This document shows, in pieces, positions 1-5,671 of a DNA stretch of 64,000 nt (position 1 is its first letter; each line of letters begins with the position of its first letter). Source of the DNA: Ralstonia sp. SET104 (GTDB lineage: Bacteria > Pseudomonadota > Gammaproteobacteria > Burkholderiales > Burkholderiaceae); contig NZ_BHVX01000013.1 in the NCBI RefSeq assembly GCF_003851545.1, positions 62,001 through 126,000 of the forward strand, given 5' to 3'. Under the pieces are notes generated by a model. The model did not search any database. It was not told the DNA's origin and saw only the letters and a program-made list of their open reading frames with translations. Position numbers and translations under genes: made by a program.

Positions 1-425
1 GCACCGCCGTGCTGCGCCAGGCGCGCGACTCCGGCCCGCTGCGCGACGAGATCGTGGCGATGCGCGAGCGTGTGGCCGAAGGCCATGCGAACCCGACCGA
101 ACTGTTTGATCTGAAGCATGATCGCGGGGGCATGGTCGATATCGAATTCACCGTGCAGTTTCTGGTGCTGCTGCACAGCGCGGCGCATGCCGAACTCACC
201 CGCAACAAGGGCAACATCGCGCTGCTGCACATGGCTGGCCAACTTGGGTTGATTGACGCGGCGACGGCCGGGCAAGTGGCCGATGCCTACCGGGATTTTC
301 GCGCGCGCCAGCACAAGTTGCGGCTCGATGGGCAATCCGCCGCGCGCGTGCCGGTCGACACCTGCGCGCATGAGGCCGCTCACGTGCGTGCGTTGTGGGC
401 GCAAGTGTTCGGGCCCGCGCAATGA
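1..425 (+). CDS. glnE: Glutamine synthetase adenylyltransferase, C-terminal part (5'-truncated by window edge)
   Basis: Only the last ~140 codons of this gene are present; the reading frame is open from the first bases. The motif FDLKHDRGGMVDIEF is characteristic of the second nucleotidyltransferase domain and following helical region of GlnE, the bifunctional enzyme that adenylylates and deadenylylates glutamine synthetase in response to PII and nitrogen status. The full protein is normally over 900 residues, so most of it lies to the left. The TGA stop overlaps the ATG of the rhombosortase gene (ATGA), so the two are probably co-transcribed. The assignment rests on the C-terminal motif and length only. 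Confidence 0.88.
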   Translation, partial: TAVLRQARDSGPLRDEIVAMRERVAEGHANPTELFDLKHDRGGMVDIEFTVQFLVLLHSAAHAELTRNKGNIALLHMAGQLGLIDAATAGQVADAYRDFRARQHKLRLDGQSAARVPVDTCAHEAAHVRALWAQVFGPAQ

Positions 426-1042
426 AGTGGCATCGGCACGCGCTGCATACCTGGGGCGCATGCGCCGGTGTGACCGCGCTGTCGGCAGCGTTTTCGTTTG
501 TGCCGTGGTTGTATGCAGTCGGGCTGTATCAACGCGATGCGGTGCGCGCGGGGCAGTGGTGGCGCATCGTCACCGCCATGTGGGTACATCTGGACACATG
601 GCATTGGCTGGCCGATGCGATGGCGGCAGCGGGGCTGATCCTGCTGCTCGCGCGCGTGTTGCGGCCGCAGGCCATCGTCGGGGCGCTGGTGGTGTGCGGG
701 GTACTGGCGCAGATCGCGCTGCTCACTCAGCCGGCGGTGCAGTGGTACGGCGGGCTCTCCGGCGCGCTGCATGGTCTGGCGGCGTGGGGCGGGTTGCGTC
801 TGCTTCGGCCTTCTACGGACGATGCCGAAGATCGTTTCTCGCGCTGGATTGGTGTTGCGCTGTGCGTGGGCGTGCTGGTGAAGGTGTGGCTCGAGCAATC
901 GTGGCTGTCGCCCATCGCCTATGACCCGCGCTGGGGGTTTGGTGTTGTGCGCATCGCGCATGCTTTTGGCGCCGCGAGCGGATTGCTGGTCTGGGTGCTG
1001 GGGGAGTGGCGTGCCCAAGGCCGGAGGCAGTCGCAGGGTTGA
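422..1042 (+). CDS. rrtA: Rhombosortase (rhomboid-family intramembrane serine protease)
   Basis: This 206-residue membrane protein has about six hydrophobic segments and the rhomboid catalytic core: GLSGALHG with the nucleophile at Ser113, and the partner histidine at His180 in AHAFGAASG. An HLDTWH motif (His56, His61) matches the first conserved histidines of the family. It is short, as expected for rhombosortases, which cleave C-terminal GlyGly-CTERM tails of exported proteins. The nearest genes beyond the terminator encode two S8 proteases with exactly such tails, which strongly supports this subfamily over a generic rhomboid. The start is the ATG inside the ATGA overlap with glnE. The function is inferred from motif and neighbourhood. 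Confidence 0.85.
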   Translation: MKWHRHALHTWGACAGVTALSAAFSFVPWLYAVGLYQRDAVRAGQWWRIVTAMWVHLDTWHWLADAMAAAGLILLLARVLRPQAIVGALVVCGVLAQIALLTQPAVQWYGGLSGALHGLAAWGGLRLLRPSTDDAEDRFSRWIGVALCVGVLVKVWLEQSWLSPIAYDPRWGFGVVRIAHAFGAASGLLVWVLGEWRAQGRRQSQG

Positions 1043-1072
1043 TCGGCTGATCAGGCATATGCCGATGCAGTA

Positions 1073-1112
1073 AAAAACGGACACGCCGGTGTGTGCCAGC
1101 GTGTCCGTTTTT
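1073..1112. terminator. Bidirectional intrinsic terminator between rrtA and S8 protease gene
   Basis: Perfect inverted repeat: AAAAACGGACACGC at 1073-1086 pairs with GCGTGTCCGTTTTT at 1099-1112 around a 12-base loop. The A-tract on the left and T-tract on the right allow it to act on both strands. It separates the convergent rrtA (+) and S8 protease (-) genes, whose stop codons lie 30 and 11 bases away. Confidence 0.9.
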
Positions 1113-1123
1113 CATTGACGCGG

Positions 1124-3091
1124 TTACGCTTTGCGGCGGCGGAAGGAGCGTGCGCCACTGGCGAACAGCAGGCCCGCCAGCCACAACGGAAGCTGGCCGC
1201 CACCGCCACTGCTGCTGCTATTAGGCGCAGTACCGTTGATCGTGCCCGTACCCGAGCTCGGCGCCGCCGTGGCCGTCACGCTCACGGTATCGGAAGCCGT
1301 CGCGCCCGAGCTGTTCGTCAACGTCACGCTGAATGTGTAGACGCCGGCAACCCCCGGCGTGAACGTGGCTGTGCTGACGCCGTTGGCATCCGGCCCGGAG
1401 GTCGTCAATGTGACGGGGTTTCCGGCGGTCTGGGCCCAGACGGAGCTGCTGGTCGTCTTGTTGTAGCCGGCGCCGCCCACGGAGGTCAGCGTGACGGCCG
1501 TGTTGGCGGTAACGCTCGACGCCGATGCCGCAGCGTGTACGGTCGGCGAGCCCTGAGCCTGCGTGAGGGCGGCCCCGGCATCCAGCGTGCCGGCCCCGCA
1601 AACGCCCGCGTGCGTCGCGCAATACGTGCCCGCCACGAATGGACGCGCCGATTGCTTGATGATCGCCGTGATGTTGTCTGGTGTGAGCGCAGGTTGAACC
1701 GACAGCATCAGTGCTGCGGTGGCAGCAACATGCGGTGTGGCCATCGACGTGCCGATGTCTCGGGCATAGGTGTCACCCGCGGGCGATGCCGCTGGCGACG
1801 TCGTGCCGCTGTTGGACAGCGACACAATTTTGCTGCCGGAGCCAGGAATGACCGTGCCTGAGCCACCGCCTGGCGCGCTGATCGTTGTTTGCGCGCCGAC
1901 GTTGGCGTAGAACGCGCTGTCGCCTTCCAGCGAGTGGGCCGTCACGGCGATGGTGCCCGTGCAGTTGGCGGGCGCATCCACGGGCCCAGCCTCGTTGCCG
2001 GCAGCCGCCACAATCGTCACGCCCAGGGCGCGCGCCGCGGTGATGCGGCTTTGCTCCAACGTTGAACAGCTTCCGGAGCCGCCCAGGCTCATGTTGATGA
2101 CCTTGACCGGCGACGGGTTGTTCGCGACACCGGGGACGCTGCCGCCAGACAGCCACGTCATCGCGTCCATGATGTCGGACGTCGCGCCCCCGCACTTGCC
2201 CAGCGCCCGTGCCATCTGCACGCGCACGCCAGGAGCAATGCCCGCGATGCCGATGCTGTTGTGCTGCGCCCCGATCTGGCCCGCGACGAACGTGCCGTGC
2301 CAACTGCTGTTGCTTGCGCTGCTGCCGCAGAACGTCGGATACGACGTTGCGTCGGTGCTGCTGACCCAATCGCCCGGATCGGACGGGTCGGTATTCGTGA
2401 GCGTGTTGTTCGCGCCGTTGTTGGCGAATCCGGACGGAATCGTATTGCCCGTTTTCGGATCGGAGCTGCCGGTCAGCGCACTGCTGCTGACGAAGTTGCG
2501 GCCGGTACCGAAGTTCAGCCCAACAAAGTCGGCATGGTCCGCTCGGATGCCGGTGTCCACAATGCCGACGCCGATGGTGCTCACCCCGCTGGTGGTGTCC
2601 CAGGCGGCCGTTACGTTGGCGCCGCCGGGAGCGCTGGCGCTGGGCGGCATCAGGTTCCATTGCTGGCCGAACAGCGGATCGGTGGCCAGCGCCATCGGCC
2701 GCATGATGCGATCCGGCGACACGTATTCGAACTCGCCGCTGGCCTCCATGCGCTGGGCGACGGTCTGGGCGTCGTCGAAGGTCATGACCTTGGGCAGCGT
2801 CACCACATGCGCACCGCCCGACATGGGCCGTTTGTACGTCATCGGCAATTGCGCTGCCGCCGACCAGCGTTGCACGGTTGCCACGTCCGCATGCGTGGCC
2901 GTGCCGTCAGCCGCAACCGATTGCGCCTTCAGGCCCGAACTTTTCTCTTTCACCACCAACTGCGTCACCCATTGCAGTTGCGTATTGAACGTTGTGGATT
3001 TCTCCAGCGCCAGTGCCGGCGCAACGTGATACGACACCAGCCCAAGCGCCACCAGCGCCTGCACTACACCCCCGGCAACCATCGTCTTCAT
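1124..3091 (-). CDS. Secreted S8 family serine peptidase with PKD-like domain and GlyGly-CTERM tail
   Basis: A 655-residue preproprotein. The order is: signal peptide (to about residue 29), I9-like propeptide with YVSPDRIMRP near 123-132, and a subtilase domain with catalytic Asp179 (VDTG), His265 (WHGT), oxyanion Asn366 (AAGNE) and Ser449 (GTSMATPH). A PKD/Ig-like domain follows at about 514-608. The Ser/Gly-rich linker SSSSGGGG leads to a hydrophobic segment and a basic end RRRK, the layout of a GlyGly-CTERM sorting tail. The chosen ATG has an AGGAC site upstream and begins directly with the signal peptide; an in-frame ATG at 3148 would add 19 residues that do not fit. It is the probable substrate of the adjacent rhombosortase and is likely released or surface-attached after cleavage. 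Confidence 0.87.
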   Translation of the reverse strand: MKTMVAGGVVQALVALGLVSYHVAPALALEKSTTFNTQLQWVTQLVVKEKSSGLKAQSVAADGTATHADVATVQRWSAAAQLPMTYKRPMSGGAHVVTLPKVMTFDDAQTVAQRMEASGEFEYVSPDRIMRPMALATDPLFGQQWNLMPPSASAPGGANVTAAWDTTSGVSTIGVGIVDTGIRADHADFVGLNFGTGRNFVSSSALTGSSDPKTGNTIPSGFANNGANNTLTNTDPSDPGDWVSSTDATSYPTFCGSSASNSSWHGTFVAGQIGAQHNSIGIAGIAPGVRVQMARALGKCGGATSDIMDAMTWLSGGSVPGVANNPSPVKVINMSLGGSGSCSTLEQSRITAARALGVTIVAAAGNEAGPVDAPANCTGTIAVTAHSLEGDSAFYANVGAQTTISAPGGGSGTVIPGSGSKIVSLSNSGTTSPAASPAGDTYARDIGTSMATPHVAATAALMLSVQPALTPDNITAIIKQSARPFVAGTYCATHAGVCGAGTLDAGAALTQAQGSPTVHAAASASSVTANTAVTLTSVGGAGYNKTTSSSVWAQTAGNPVTLTTSGPDANGVSTATFTPGVAGVYTFSVTLTNSSGATASDTVSVTATAAPSSGTGTINGTAPNSSSSGGGGQLPLWLAGLLFASGARSFRRRKA

Positions 3092-3121
3092 TAGAGCAGT
3101 CCTATTTTTTCGCGAGGAATT

Positions 3122-3133
3122 GCAAAGCTTTGC
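3122..3133. promoter_or_regulatory. Perfect 12-base palindrome upstream of S8 protease gene
   Basis: GCAAAGCTTTGC is a perfect palindrome lying 30 bases upstream of the preferred ATG of the PKD-containing S8 protease. It could be an operator or part of a leader hairpin. No matching copy was noticed in front of the second protease gene. Confidence 0.3.
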
Positions 3134-3239
3134 GATTGCATTGTCCAAAAGGTTTGAGACGGCGTGGCTCAGATTGAACTAAGTAAAAACCCTAGTATCT
3201 GGCGATAAACCGGGTGTGCGGGGGCGCCGCAAATGAAAC

Positions 3240-3260
3240 CCGCCGCCACATGGGCGGCGG
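3240..3260. terminator. GC-rich hairpin between the two S8 protease genes
   Basis: CCGCCGCC (3240-3247) pairs perfectly with GGCGGCGG (3253-3260) across a five-base loop. A TGTTTTT run follows on the plus strand; on the minus strand, the direction of the flanking genes, the hairpin is followed only by GTTTCATTT. It sits 30 bases past the stop of the upstream protease gene and may be a partial terminator. Confidence 0.45.
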
Positions 3261-3290
3261 TGTTTTTCGAGCGCGGGCGTCGGCAGTGTG

Positions 3291-4931
3291 TCAGTCGCGT
3301 TTGCGTCGGCAGGTCAGCCCCAGCGCCAGCAGCAGCGCCGCACCGGCCAGCGGGACGGCACCTCCGCCGCCGCCGCTACTGCCGCCGCTGTTGGTCGAGC
3401 CACTTGAGCCACTTGAACCATTGCCGGCACCGGCCGGCGAGGTCATCTGGGCATAGCCGACGGCGCCTGCAGTATCCAGCAGACCTGCCCCACAGATGCC
3501 GGTATTGACCGCGCAATACGTTCCGCTGGGGTGCGGTCGCGCGGTTTGCTTCAGGCCCGCCAGAACCTGGGCGTTCGACAATTGCGGCTGCACGCTCAGC
3601 ATCAGCGCGATGGTGCCGGCCACTTCCGGCGTTGAGAAGCTCGTACCCGCCACCGATTTGACGGTGGGGTTGCCCACTGTTTGCGTGCCGTCGTTGGAAT
3701 CAGCCTGGATGACTGAAACAGGCGCGGCACAAGTTGCCGGACTTGTGCTCGTGATGACCTTTGAGTTGCCGCACCCGCCGCCCGGTGCAGACAGCGCCAC
3801 CTGCGGCCCCACGTTTGCGTAACTGGCGTTCTCGCCGCTGTCGACATGCGCGGTGACGGCGATGGCGCCCGTGCAATTGGCCGGCGCGTCGACGCTTTGC
3901 GCGGCTTCATTGCCGGCGGCAGCTACCACGATGGTGCCGCGCGCGGCCAACTGGTTCACCGCGTCCTGCTCTGCAGCCGAACATTGGCCCACGCTGCCCA
4001 GGCTCACGTTCACTACGCGTGCCGGGTTGGCATTGGCTGGCACCCCCGATACGGCGATGCCACCGGCCCAGAGCATGCCGTCCACCGTGTCGGACAGCAG
4101 CGCGCCACATTTGCCCGACACGCGTACCGGCACGACGTTCGTGTTCCAGCCCACGCCAGCGATGTCGAGCAGGTTATTCGTACTGGCCGCCAAGACACTG
4201 CTGACCTCGGTGCCGTGCCAACTGCTATTGGCGATATCGGCCGTGGTACAGCCCGAAATGTTCGACACATCCGTGCTCGTCACGCCGTCGCCCAGGTCAT
4301 GGGCATCCGGGCCGCGGCCCGTGGTGTTGCCCGCGCGCGCAGGATCCGTGATGAAGTTGTAGCCCGGCAGGATCTTGCTCAACAGATCGGGGTGATCGGT
4401 GTACCCGGTGTCGACCACCGCCACCACGATGCTGGTCGACCCCTGCGTGATGCTCCACGCCGACGCCGCATTGATGCCGCCCGGCACCAGCGTTGGCGAG
4501 GCCAGGTTGTTCTGCGTGGCAAACAACGGATCGTTGGGAACGGTATTGGGTCGCAGAATCCGATCGGGCACCACATAGGCTACGCGCGCGTCCTGCGCAA
4601 TCTTGTTGACTGTCGCCTGAATGCTTGTGGTGTCGGTCAGACCGGTGTGCACGAGCTGCGCGTTGGTGGCCAGCGTGCGCTTGACCTGCAACGAACTGCC
4701 CGCCGCTTGCGCCACTGACAGCAACCGGTTGCTCGCCTCGCTGGCCGAGAGCGTTTTGCGCGTGCCACTGGTATCGTCGCGCCATTTGATGATCAGGTCG
4801 CCGGTGTATTGCGGCTGCGCGTTGGTGGCTGCGGCGGCTGCAGCAGGGTAGCCGCTCATCACCCAGGCCAGACACGCAACGCTGGCGCCTGCATGGAGCC
4901 AAGACTTCAACCGGAAGAGGGAGGGGGTCAT
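3291..4931 (-). CDS. Secreted S8 family serine peptidase with GlyGly-CTERM tail
   Basis: A 546-residue preproprotein: signal peptide ending near the AAAAAT stretch (residues 30-36), an I9-like propeptide (about 40-130, ending YVVPDRILRP), then a subtilase domain with Asp174 (VDTG), His239 (WHGT), Asn341 (AAGNE) and Ser431 (GTSFSTPE). A Gly/Ser-rich linker (about 502-524), a hydrophobic helix and the basic end CRRKRD form a GlyGly-CTERM tail. Unlike its neighbour it has no PKD-like domain, so the tail follows the catalytic domain closely. The ATG at 4931 has GGAG eight bases upstream and starts a good signal peptide; the frame stays open to 5168 but that extension is implausible. The two proteases are diverged paralogues. 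Confidence 0.87.
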   Translation of the reverse strand: MTPSLFRLKSWLHAGASVACLAWVMSGYPAAAAAATNAQPQYTGDLIIKWRDDTSGTRKTLSASEASNRLLSVAQAAGSSLQVKRTLATNAQLVHTGLTDTTSIQATVNKIAQDARVAYVVPDRILRPNTVPNDPLFATQNNLASPTLVPGGINAASAWSITQGSTSIVVAVVDTGYTDHPDLLSKILPGYNFITDPARAGNTTGRGPDAHDLGDGVTSTDVSNISGCTTADIANSSWHGTEVSSVLAASTNNLLDIAGVGWNTNVVPVRVSGKCGALLSDTVDGMLWAGGIAVSGVPANANPARVVNVSLGSVGQCSAAEQDAVNQLAARGTIVVAAAGNEAAQSVDAPANCTGAIAVTAHVDSGENASYANVGPQVALSAPGGGCGNSKVITSTSPATCAAPVSVIQADSNDGTQTVGNPTVKSVAGTSFSTPEVAGTIALMLSVQPQLSNAQVLAGLKQTARPHPSGTYCAVNTGICGAGLLDTAGAVGYAQMTSPAGAGNGSSGSSGSTNSGGSSGGGGGAVPLAGAALLLALGLTCRRKRD

Positions 4932-5140
4932 CAGCGCGTGCTCCGTGGTGTCTCGTTGTAATGAGAAAACGCCGTCAAGATGTGATCGTTGACAGACCGT
5001 TACACAAAACCAAAGGTAGCACGCGACCCGCCCGCTTGGGGTGGCGGCAAATAGCGATGACGTTTGCGAAGAGAAAAATCCGCCTGTGCGCTGCAGCCTA
5101 AGCAGAATACGGGCCTGACGATGGGGGCCGGGGCTGGAAT

Positions 5141-5163
5141 CGGACGCCGGGAGAGGGCGTCCG
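5141..5163. other. GC-rich hairpin downstream of the propeptide-like lipoprotein gene
   Basis: CGGACGCC (5141-5148) pairs with GGCGTCCG (5156-5163) around a seven-base loop, 35 bases past the lipoprotein stop. No U-run follows on either strand, so this is a hairpin that could stabilise or attenuate the transcript rather than a clear terminator. The rest of 4932-5197 holds only the leader of the S8 protease gene. Confidence 0.4.
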
Positions 5164-5197
5164 ATCATTCATGGTGTGGAGGGGTGTTGCTGGCCGT

Positions 5198-5671
5198 TCA
5201 GTGCTGGATCTTCACCACACGATCCGGGTCGGCCGAGGCGATGCCTGGCGTGCTGCGCAACGCTGCCACCGCACCATCCAGCGTCGCCGACGCGTCGCCC
5301 GAGCTGGCGCGCACTACCCAGAACCCGCCCGACATCGGGCGCACCACGTTAAAGGCCAGACGCGGCGTTGCACGTGCGCCTGCAGCATCGAGCACGCCTT
5401 GCACGGTGGCCGACGACGTGGTCGGTGCGCTCAGGCCGATGATGACGTCGCCCAGATTGTGCGCGGCCGACACGGAAGCCGGTGGCTGGGCGTTGGCAGA
5501 GGCGGGGTCCATGGCAGGCGGCTTGCCCGGGTCAATGGCTGGCACTGATTTGCACGCGGCCAGCAGGCACAGGCCGAGGGCCATCGCCAGTGCGGGCTTG
5601 GCGGGCGACAGCGGGGATCGGGAGCGGGCAGCCGATTGGGGCATGCGGGGCATGCGGGGCCTGCGGGCCAT
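5198..5671 (-). CDS. Lipoprotein resembling a stand-alone S8 protease propeptide (I9-like)
   Basis: A 157-residue protein with a basic N-terminus, a hydrophobic stretch and a lipobox LAAC (lipidated Cys40), followed by a Pro/Ala-rich linker (41-70). Residues 73-157 resemble the propeptides of the two S8 proteases encoded next to it. DVIIGL matches DLIIKW of the second protease. RPMSGG is identical to a segment of the first protease's propeptide. DPDRVVKIQ aligns with SPDRIMRP and VPDRILRP. There is no protease domain. I infer a membrane-anchored intramolecular-chaperone-like or inhibitor partner of the adjacent proteases. AAGGAG six bases before the ATG fixes the start; an upstream in-frame codon at 5743 is rejected. 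Confidence 0.65.
   Translation of the reverse strand: MARRPRMPRMPQSAARSRSPLSPAKPALAMALGLCLLAACKSVPAIDPGKPPAMDPASANAQPPASVSAAHNLGDVIIGLSAPTTSSATVQGVLDAAGARATPRLAFNVVRPMSGGFWVVRASSGDASATLDGAVAALRSTPGIASADPDRVVKIQH

What the first reader, a model, noticed from the sequence alone, without database searches (positions are those of the whole stretch)
422..5671. Rhombosortase beside two GlyGly-CTERM subtilases and a candidate chaperone/inhibitor
Seen: a rhomboid-fold protease with GLSGALHG and a distal catalytic His sits within 5 kb of two S8 proteases ending in Gly-rich linker, hydrophobic helix and basic tail, plus a propeptide-like lipoprotein. Known: rhombosortases cleave GlyGly-CTERM tails, which can lead to surface attachment or release. 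Inference: these genes form one self-contained sorting unit, with the lipoprotein possibly assisting folding or blocking the proteases until delivery. The convergent layout is compact enough to move as a module.
Basis: partly seen in the sequence, partly recalled or inferred. Interest (0 to 1): 0.75.

Follow-up and report, generated by a model that had tools for sequence, protein, structure and literature searches.

The report
Lipid-anchored propeptide guarding surface subtilases
Next to a known protein-sorting enzyme and two surface-bound protease genes, this bacterium carries a small lipoprotein that is a free-standing copy of the proteases' own inhibitory prosegment, and related gene sets recur in other bacteria, sometimes inside the secretion-system operon.

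Summary
In detail: rhombosortase (422-1042), two S8 proteases with sorting tails (1124-3091, 3291-4934) and a lipoprotein (5198-5671). The rhombosortase/tailed-protein pairing in Ralstonia was published in 2011 (PMC3237569). "Self-contained" fails: a third tailed S8 protease and the type II secretin gene lie on other contigs. "Moves as a module" fails within the family, where the locus lies between recN and glnE wherever contigs show it. The lipoprotein is the new part. It is homologous to the proteases' own propeptides (profile-profile probability 99.5%, controls at most 1%) and ends within about one residue of where the cis propeptide is predicted to be cut. In 150 family genomes it and above-cut-off rhombosortase occur in the same 28. 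Nine more genomes, in seven other families, carry a lipoprotein-like relative beside an S8 protease with a C-terminal membrane tail. The adjacent sorting enzyme, where there is one, is rhombosortase or the unrelated MrtJ. In four loci the set lies between gspF and gspG of the type II operon; in a fifth it follows gspF. Best reading: a membrane-held, trans-acting propeptide (inhibitor, perhaps chaperone) for type II-secreted, surface-sorted subtilases. Function is inferred; no structure or activity was obtained.

The parts
422..1042 (+). rrtA, rhombosortase (rhomboid-family intramembrane serine protease)
   Evidence: TIGR03902 146 bits, cut-off 84; PF01694 36.5 bits, cut-off 22.6
1072..1113 (.). 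inverted repeat between the convergent rrtA and mprA1 stop codons, A run on one side and T run on the other, bidirectional-terminator-like
   Evidence: read directly; terminator-like site on the - strand at 1097-1080 (9 sites found in the region, shuffles give mean 4.4)
1124..3091 (-). mprA1, S8 subtilase with signal peptide, own propeptide, K319L-like PKD domain and sorting tail (ORF open to 3148; start inferred)
   Evidence: PF00082 142.7 bits, PF22352 28.8 bits against 27
1130..1207 (-). GlyGly-CTERM-type tail of mprA1
   Evidence: TIGR03867 26.8 bits in the whole-genome scan, 21.8 in the protein scan, cut-off 19.7
3291..4934 (-). mprA2, S8 subtilase with signal peptide, own propeptide and sorting tail (ORF open to 5168; start inferred from the signal peptide)
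   Evidence: PF00082 133.4 bits; 39-40% identical to mprA1
3297..3371 (-). GlyGly-CTERM-type tail of mprA2
   Evidence: TIGR03867 29.6 bits in the whole-genome scan, 23.6 in the protein scan, cut-off 19.7
5198..5671 (-). lpp, lipoprotein: lipobox (Cys40), Pro/Ala-rich linker, stand-alone S8-propeptide domain
   Evidence: lipobox by inspection; homology to S8 propeptides
5201..5458 (-). propeptide-homologous domain of lpp, ending 7 residues after the Asp of the PDR motif
   Evidence: hhalign columns; C-terminal ends compared

Best explanation
The locus is a dedicated rhombosortase system whose substrates are two S8 subtilases, plus a third component that I did not find described: a lipoprotein which is a stand-alone, lipid-anchored copy of the subtilase propeptide. 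Proposed working: the subtilases enter the periplasm and fold with their cis propeptide, which they cut. [quoted passage not shown] The lipoprotein sits in a membrane, probably the outer one, and binds the protease like a cut propeptide, its C-terminus lying in the active-site groove. It thereby blocks premature proteolysis in the periplasm and may also help folding or hand-over to the secretion system. Shown here: homology, lipobox, end point, gene neighbourhood, co-occurrence. Inferred: binding, inhibition, membrane, order of steps.
For: (1) Homology: a profile of 19 family lipoproteins (A1) hits propeptides of neighbouring proteases, best three 1.2e-9, 5e-8 and 7e-8. Profile-profile probability is 99.5%, E 1.9e-22, for 18 stand-alone against 33 cis propeptides, while reversed propeptides and four catalytic segments give at most 1%. 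7 of 19 lipoproteins reach Pfam PF22148, fervidolysin prodomain, at E up to 1, best 7.6e-4. (2) End point: five solved homologues (7w2a, 5yl7, 9i67, 3ti9, 3ti7) place the mature N-terminus of mprA1 at Ala134, so the cut falls 6 residues after the Asp of PDR; the lipoprotein stops 7 residues after it in all 14 rows of the genus and 5-7 after in 6 of 9 rows from other families. (3) Co-occurrence: the same 28 of 150 family genomes have lpp (E up to 1.3e-8) and above-cut-off rhombosortase. (4) Neighbourhood: all 9 lpp genomes found outside the family have an S8 protease next door and a rhombosortase or MrtJ in the genome. In 4 of these 9 loci the set lies between gspF and gspG, in a fifth directly after gspF. 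lpp precedes the protease with a 4-base overlap in 5 of 9. (5) Among S8 loci of the class survey, an adjacent lpp goes with a C-terminal membrane tail: 7 of 8 against 1 of 13, Fisher p 5e-4. (6) The residue after the lipid Cys is never Asp in 40 of 40 named loci, as expected for the outer membrane (sorting rule recalled).
Against: No structure or activity: the structure server was busy at every attempt. Seven of 8 rhombosortase-S8 pairs inspected outside the family (order survey) lack lpp. The proteases already carry a cis propeptide, so a trans one is not needed for folding. With A1 the propeptides of the Ralstonia mprA2 type were not hit at all at E up to 1; with the wider profile A3 they are weak (window mprA2 3e-4). 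Direct blastp between window lpp and its neighbours is not significant. A phage outer spanin model, also a lipoprotein, is matched by 5 of 19 members, best 0.0028. In Cupriavidus-type rows and two other loci the lipoprotein runs 12-22 residues past the Asp, and L296 has no clear motif. Only 4 of the 9 outside proteins pass my strict lipobox pattern; the other 5 have lipobox-like sequences by eye. The mature N-terminus is taken from crystal chains, which may be construct ends.
Confidence: 0.68

Rival explanations
1. The lipoprotein is mainly a steric chaperone (foldase), like the lipase-specific foldases and CpaB, needed for the protease to fold or be handed to the type II system, not an inhibitor.
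For: Membrane-held dedicated chaperones of type II substrates are known (PMC4713064, passages); four loci lie between gspF and gspG.
Against: The S8 proteases beside lpp keep a cis propeptide region (weakly scored in L163, L298 and the second S8 of L295), which should do the folding; seven rhombosortase-S8 pairs have no lpp.
Confidence: 0.3
2. The lipoprotein is a tether: it binds the mature protease and holds it on the membrane, adding to or replacing the tail anchor.
For: Lipid anchor and Pro-rich linker conserved in the family; partners in the class survey are nearly all tailed proteases.
Against: An active-site-binding propeptide would silence the protease it tethers; the tail should already anchor (inference from VesB, PMC6219818).
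Confidence: 0.12
3. The lipoprotein is a leftover duplicate of the neighbour's propeptide with no role of its own.
For: Homology to neighbouring propeptides. On the careful tree the family lipoproteins share a supported branch (95/96) with the family's mprA2-type propeptides, so they may come from an old duplication of that propeptide.
Against: It is not recent: the 9 family rows form one clade (100/99) that spans three genera, and lipobox, end point and position are kept.
Confidence: 0.05
4. Nothing new: this is only the rhombosortase/GlyGly-CTERM dedicated pair already listed for Ralstonia in 2011, and the lipoprotein is an unrelated neighbour.
For: PMC3237569 Table 3 lists R. pickettii and R. 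solanacearum.
Against: lpp stays between recN and the protease in the family wherever contigs show it, at roughly 30-90% identity, and lpp-S8 pairing recurs in seven other families.
Confidence: 0.05

Closest known systems
Rhombosortase / GlyGly-CTERM dedicated systems (PMC3237569; VesB/RssP of Vibrio, PMC6219818)
   Same: TIGR03902 enzyme beside tailed protease(s); Ralstonia loci listed in 2011; type II export and surface retention shown for VesB.
   Different: In the passages and section I saw, neither paper describes a stand-alone propeptide lipoprotein; VesB is trypsin-like with its own propeptide. Haft found no link of rhombosortase to a subclass of type II systems; here three rhombosortase loci of two families sit between gspF and gspG.
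MrtJ / JDVT-CTERM two-gene neighbourhoods (passage of PMC11980579, citing Haft 2024, which is not held)
   Same: In G706 and G561 MrtJ lies directly beside the tailed S8 protease.
   Different: Here the set has a third gene, the propeptide lipoprotein, and the same pair occurs with an unrelated sorting enzyme in other families.
Stand-alone propeptide-like subtilase inhibitors, MEROPS I9 kind (SUB1-ProM, yeast proteinase B inhibitor, Pleurotus proteinase A inhibitor 1, plant SPI-1; PMC6993865, passages)
   Same: Small separate gene product of propeptide kind; SUB1-ProM is also encoded beside subtilase genes.
   Different: Those named there are eukaryotic; this one is bacterial, lipid-anchored and tied to a sorting enzyme and the type II system.
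Membrane-bound type II substrate chaperones: Lif/LipB, CpaB (PMC4713064, passages)
   Same: Membrane-held, dedicated, encoded beside one secreted enzyme.
   Different: N-terminal transmembrane helix instead of a lipid; the passages describe other domains (lipase chaperone, SRPBCC), not a propeptide.

Membership tests
Rhombosortase (TIGR03902) | Match above the equivalog cut-off | tested here: met
   146 bits against 84
Rhombosortase (TIGR03902) | Rhomboid catalytic Ser (GxSG) and His | tested here: met
   GLSGALHG and a later His in the read-out sequence (by inspection)
Rhombosortase (TIGR03902) | Cleaves the tails of these proteases | not testable with these tools
   needs mass spectrometry
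GlyGly-CTERM proteins (TIGR03501) | TIGR03501 above cut-off | tested here: not met
   no match above cut-off in the genome
GlyGly-CTERM proteins, MprA form (TIGR03867) | Tail model above cut-off | tested here: met
   21.8 and 23.6 bits against 19.7
S8 subtilases | PF00082 above cut-off with Asp, His and Ser motifs | tested here: met
   142.7 and 133.4 bits; VDTG, SWHGT and GTS motifs by inspection
Stand-alone S8 propeptide / I9-like inhibitors | Sequence homology to S8 propeptides | tested here: met
   controls in 84
Stand-alone S8 propeptide / I9-like inhibitors | Curated Pfam model above gathering score for the window protein | tested here: not met
   no above-cut-off Pfam family for the window protein
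Stand-alone S8 propeptide / I9-like inhibitors | Propeptide fold | not tested
   structure server busy at every call
Stand-alone S8 propeptide / I9-like inhibitors | Inhibits a subtilase | not testable with these tools
   needs an assay
Bacterial lipoproteins | Lipobox with Cys | tested here: met
   Cys invariant in 19 of 19 family rows; pattern found in 40 of 40 named loci. Outside the family 4 of 9 pass the pattern, 5 are lipobox-like by eye

The most novel reading that the evidence does not exclude
A general three-part surface-protease cassette of proteobacteria: a lipid-anchored, pre-cut propeptide acting in trans, a tailed subtilase, and an exchangeable intramembrane sorting protease (rhomboid-type rhombosortase or the unrelated glutamic protease MrtJ), often built into the type II secretion operon between gspF and gspG, where the lipoprotein works as a membrane-held safety catch during export. 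It may have arisen more than once from subtilase propeptides.
Probability: 0.55. Interest if true: 0.78.

Novelty: new variant of a known kind. Interest (0 to 1): 0.62.

Why it matters
How Gram-negative cells keep a broad-range protease harmless while it folds in the periplasm and waits for export is poorly understood. A lipid-anchored trans-propeptide encoded with the protease, its sorting enzyme and sometimes the secretion machinery gives a small, testable system for that question. It also places rhombosortase and JDVT-tailed cargo inside the type II operon in some families; the 2011 paper reported no evidence that rhombosortase marks a subclass of type II systems.

Tried and rejected
Propeptide lipoprotein as a general part of rhombosortase systems: rejected. 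Of 25 order-level rhombosortase genomes outside the family I looked at 22 loci; 8 have an adjacent S8 protease recognised by my search and only 1 of these (G206) has lpp. G481, G405 and G249 were not fetched.

Propeptide lipoprotein as a general part of JDVT-CTERM systems: rejected. I fetched 20 regions, not all 38 places listed, plus L162; only L253 and L162 carry an S8 protease that my search recognised, and only L162 has the lipoprotein.

Mobile module: rejected in this family (synteny; no plasmid match at E 1e-5).

Weak family hits: one search matched 34 of 150 genomes at E 0.01. The six weakest genomes (best E 5e-4 to 0.01: G040, G072, G136, G100, G032, G128) were not counted as lpp. Two of their loci were looked at: L041 is not lipoprotein-like and L042 gave no hit; the other four were not. 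Two genomes with rhombosortase-like matches below the cut-off (G023, G106) were not counted.

One origin or several: undecided. In 0 of 200 bootstrap trees are all stand-alone forms one group, and starred branches force at least two changes, yet the AU test does not reject one clade (p 0.30); the family lipoproteins share a 95/96 branch with the family's mprA2-type propeptides. A FastTree on the same 94 columns placed the G743/G620 lipoproteins beside their own cis propeptides, which the careful tree does not show.

Direct PDB match of the lipoprotein profile: none meaningful. Blastp of the window lipoprotein against its neighbours: not significant.

Tail test: loci were found by the lipoprotein profile, so this is not a random set of S8 genes. 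L299 (broken protease), L302 and L313 (contig ends) and the window were dropped before the Fisher count; L315 holds a second S8-like stretch that was not counted. The eight lpp-side proteases come from seven genomes. L293 misses my hydropathy cut-off (1.39 against 1.4) although its tail passes the JDVT model (35.4 bits against 27). Tails in G206, G838, G743, G620 and G569 were judged by inspection and hydropathy; the NCBIfam scans reported no TIGR03501 for them. The tail of G561 looks JDVT-like but was not reported by NCBIfam. G748 has a membrane-plus-Arg tail with a weak Gly motif. Two class-survey hits (G606, ParB-like by eye; G625) are spurious; G844 carries the domain on another protein. 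In the order search G221 is spurious and G525 is a cis propeptide.

A3, used for the class survey, includes the G175 and G206 lipoproteins; those two were first found with A1, which does not. In one search one cis row (L292) was skipped because its catalytic-Asp pattern was not recognised.
Full report
What is in the window. From left to right: the end of glnE, rrtA (422-1042, +), then on the other strand mprA1 (1124-3091), mprA2 (3291-4934) and lpp (5198-5671), followed by recN and the NAD kinase gene (glnE named from recall). rrtA scores 146 bits against TIGR03902 (cut-off 84). The proteases score 142.7 and 133.4 bits against PF00082. Their C-terminal tails pass TIGR03867, a GlyGly-CTERM form, at 21.8 and 23.6 bits against 19.7, while no TIGR03501 match in the genome passes its cut-off. 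The genome holds a third TIGR03867-tailed S8 protease on another contig (25.8 bits in the genome scan; exactly at the cut-off in the protein scan) with no propeptide-like neighbour in the 16 kb fetched, and a type II secretin gene (GspD, 639 bits) on a third contig. The nearest named loci are from Ralstonia (lipoprotein identity 83-89%).

What was known. Haft and Varghese 2011 (PMC3237569; section 15 and passages seen) list Ralstonia pickettii and R. [quoted passage not shown] The intervening gene may be the second subtilase found here; that is my inference. The words lipoprotein, propeptide, chaperone and operon do not occur in that paper's main text. So the sorting pair is known; the lipoprotein is not mentioned there.

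Conservation in the family. In a sample of 150 genomes of the family, the lipoprotein (E up to 1.3e-8) and above-cut-off rhombosortase occur in the same 28 genomes: all 14 of the window's genus that were sampled and 14 others (six weaker lipoprotein hits and two sub-cut-off rhombosortase hits are not counted). The order nadK-recN-lpp-S8 then convergent rrtA-glnE holds in these wherever the contig allows, with one to three tandem proteases; in G002 and G115 the locus is split over two contigs and in G079 the contig ends before recN. In 40 named Ralstonia/Cupriavidus loci lpp is followed by an S8 protease in 40, preceded by nadK-recN in 39 and followed by rrtA-glnE in 36; the exceptions stop at contig ends. 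The locus is therefore old and fixed in this family. No relative of lpp was found on 72,556 plasmid records at E 1e-5.

What the lipoprotein is. All 19 aligned family members keep the lipobox Cys. The residue after it is Q, A, K, S or G and never Asp in 40 named loci. The domain is homologous to S8 propeptides. A profile of 19 lipoproteins hits the propeptide of neighbouring proteases with E down to 1.2e-9, though not those of the Ralstonia mprA2 type at E up to 1; with the wider profile A3 the window's mprA1 and mprA2 propeptides score 3.8e-7 and 3.1e-4. Profile-profile comparison of 18 stand-alone with 33 cis propeptides gives probability 99.5% and E 1.9e-22, whereas reversed propeptides and four catalytic segments give at most 1%. 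Seven of 19 lipoproteins also reach the fervidolysin prodomain of Pfam at E up to 1, best 7.6e-4; five reach a phage outer-spanin lipoprotein model, best 0.0028. Direct blastp between the window lipoprotein and its neighbours is not significant, so the homology rests on profiles.

Where it ends. Aligning mprA1 with solved relatives (7w2a, 5yl7, 9i67, 3ti9, 3ti7) puts the mature N-terminus at Ala134 of the 655-residue form; the cut falls six residues after the Asp of the PDR motif. The lipoprotein stops seven residues after the matching Asp in all 14 rows of the window's genus, and five to seven after in six of nine rows from other families. Cupriavidus-type rows and two others (L162, L163) run on for 12-22 residues, and L296 has no clear motif. 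In the window's genus and most outside loci the free-standing protein therefore looks like a propeptide already cut at the natural site, the form that in subtilases stays bound as an inhibitor (stated in PMC6993865, passages).

Beyond the family. An order search with the family-only profile (A1) matched 7 of 399 genomes; two of these, G206 and G175, carry a lipoprotein of this kind beside an S8 protease. A class search with the wider profile (A3) matched 26 of 369 genomes. The 25 other than the window were all examined at locus level. Seven carry a stand-alone relative beside an S8 protease: G838, G706, G743, G569, G748, G620, G561. The rest are cis propeptides, two spurious hits, and one domain on an unrelated protein. 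The nine genomes span seven families (f10, f27, f77, f85, f125, f136, f144). Four of the nine pass my strict lipobox pattern and five are lipobox-like by eye. In five of the nine the gene precedes the protease with a four-base overlap (L162, L163, L294, L297, L298); in L292 and L296 it follows the protease.

Partner enzymes and the type II operon. All nine genomes have rhombosortase or MrtJ. Rhombosortase is adjacent in G206, G743 and G620, about 2.6 kb beyond the protease in G569, and on other contigs in G838, G748 and G561. MrtJ, an unrelated glutamic protease, is adjacent in G706 and G561; in G561 its gene overlaps the protease gene by four bases. In G743, G620, G569 and G175 the set lies between gspF and gspG, both identified by equivalog models above cut-off; in G569 two or three further genes also lie there and gspG is found only from model position 27 on, in a second frame. 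In G748 the set follows gspF directly and no gspG was seen in the fetched stretch. G175 has no rhombosortase; its protease carries a JDVT-CTERM tail (30.1 bits, cut-off 27) and MrtJ is elsewhere in the genome.

Specificity. In the class-survey loci, S8 proteases with an adjacent lipoprotein have a C-terminal membrane helix plus basic tail in 7 of 8 cases by a fixed hydropathy rule, those without one in 1 of 13 (Fisher p 5e-4; dropped rows are listed under Tried and rejected). The reverse does not hold: of 8 order-level rhombosortase-S8 pairs outside the family only 1 has the lipoprotein. One untailed S8 protease without a lipoprotein also sits just upstream of gspE-F-G (L306), so S8 genes near gsp genes are not unique to the set.

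History. On a tree of 94 columns the nine family lipoproteins form one clade (100/99) that shares a 95/96 branch with the family's mprA2-type propeptides, and eight of nine others form another clade (87/88). Holding all stand-alone forms together is not rejected (AU p 0.30), but 0 of 200 bootstrap trees show it. So they are not recent copies; whether they arose once or several times is open.

Mechanism. I commit to a membrane-held trans-acting propeptide that keeps type II-exported, surface-sorted subtilases silent in the periplasm, perhaps also aiding folding (0.68). VesB work shows rhombosortase cleavage, a glycerophosphoethanolamine-containing modification and type II export, and suggests activation after outer-membrane passage (PMC6219818, passages). 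Dedicated membrane chaperones for type II enzymes are known (PMC4713064, passages), and stand-alone propeptide-like inhibitors are known in eukaryotes (PMC6993865, passages). A bacterial, lipid-anchored one tied to a sorting enzyme was not seen in my literature searches (titles and abstract starts of the rows listed, open-licence library only; Haft 2024 on MrtJ is not held). No structure could be computed and no activity is shown.

Noticed in passing
L094-L098 (G113, G105, G043, G096, G129): Five genomes of the window's genus have a second rhombosortase at another locus; in L094 it lies beside an ExeM/NucH extracellular nuclease (NF033681 668.7 bits), and L095 shows a similar neighbour by eye. 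L096-L098 were fetched but not read in detail.
   Followed up: partly
L093 (G000:C6, about 267.7-269.9 kb): Third tailed S8 protease of the window's genome, 56% identical to mprA1, with no propeptide-like neighbour; it may be served in trans by the lipoprotein and rhombosortase of the window.
   Followed up: partly
L305:6913-8805 (G844): A propeptide-like domain at the C-terminus of a long ORF with no S8 protease recognised in the 14 kb fetched.
   Followed up: no
L306 (G807): Untailed S8 protease directly upstream of gspE-gspF-gspG, without a lipoprotein.
   Followed up: no
L083:6039-6368 (G121): A 110-residue remnant ORF that keeps a glycine-rich sorting tail next to the intact protease.
   Followed up: no
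L103:4606-6342 (G131): The S8 protease of this locus is split by an in-frame stop while the lipoprotein and rhombosortase are open.
   Followed up: no
L292:5467-6207 (G838): The S8-lipoprotein pair is followed by an ordinary rhomboid protease gene (GlpG-like, below cut-off); rhombosortase is on another contig.
   Followed up: no
L233, L239 (G406, G463; family f49): A glnE-like gene followed directly by a rhombosortase-like gene also in another family, so the glnE-rrtA adjacency may be older than the window's family.
   Followed up: no
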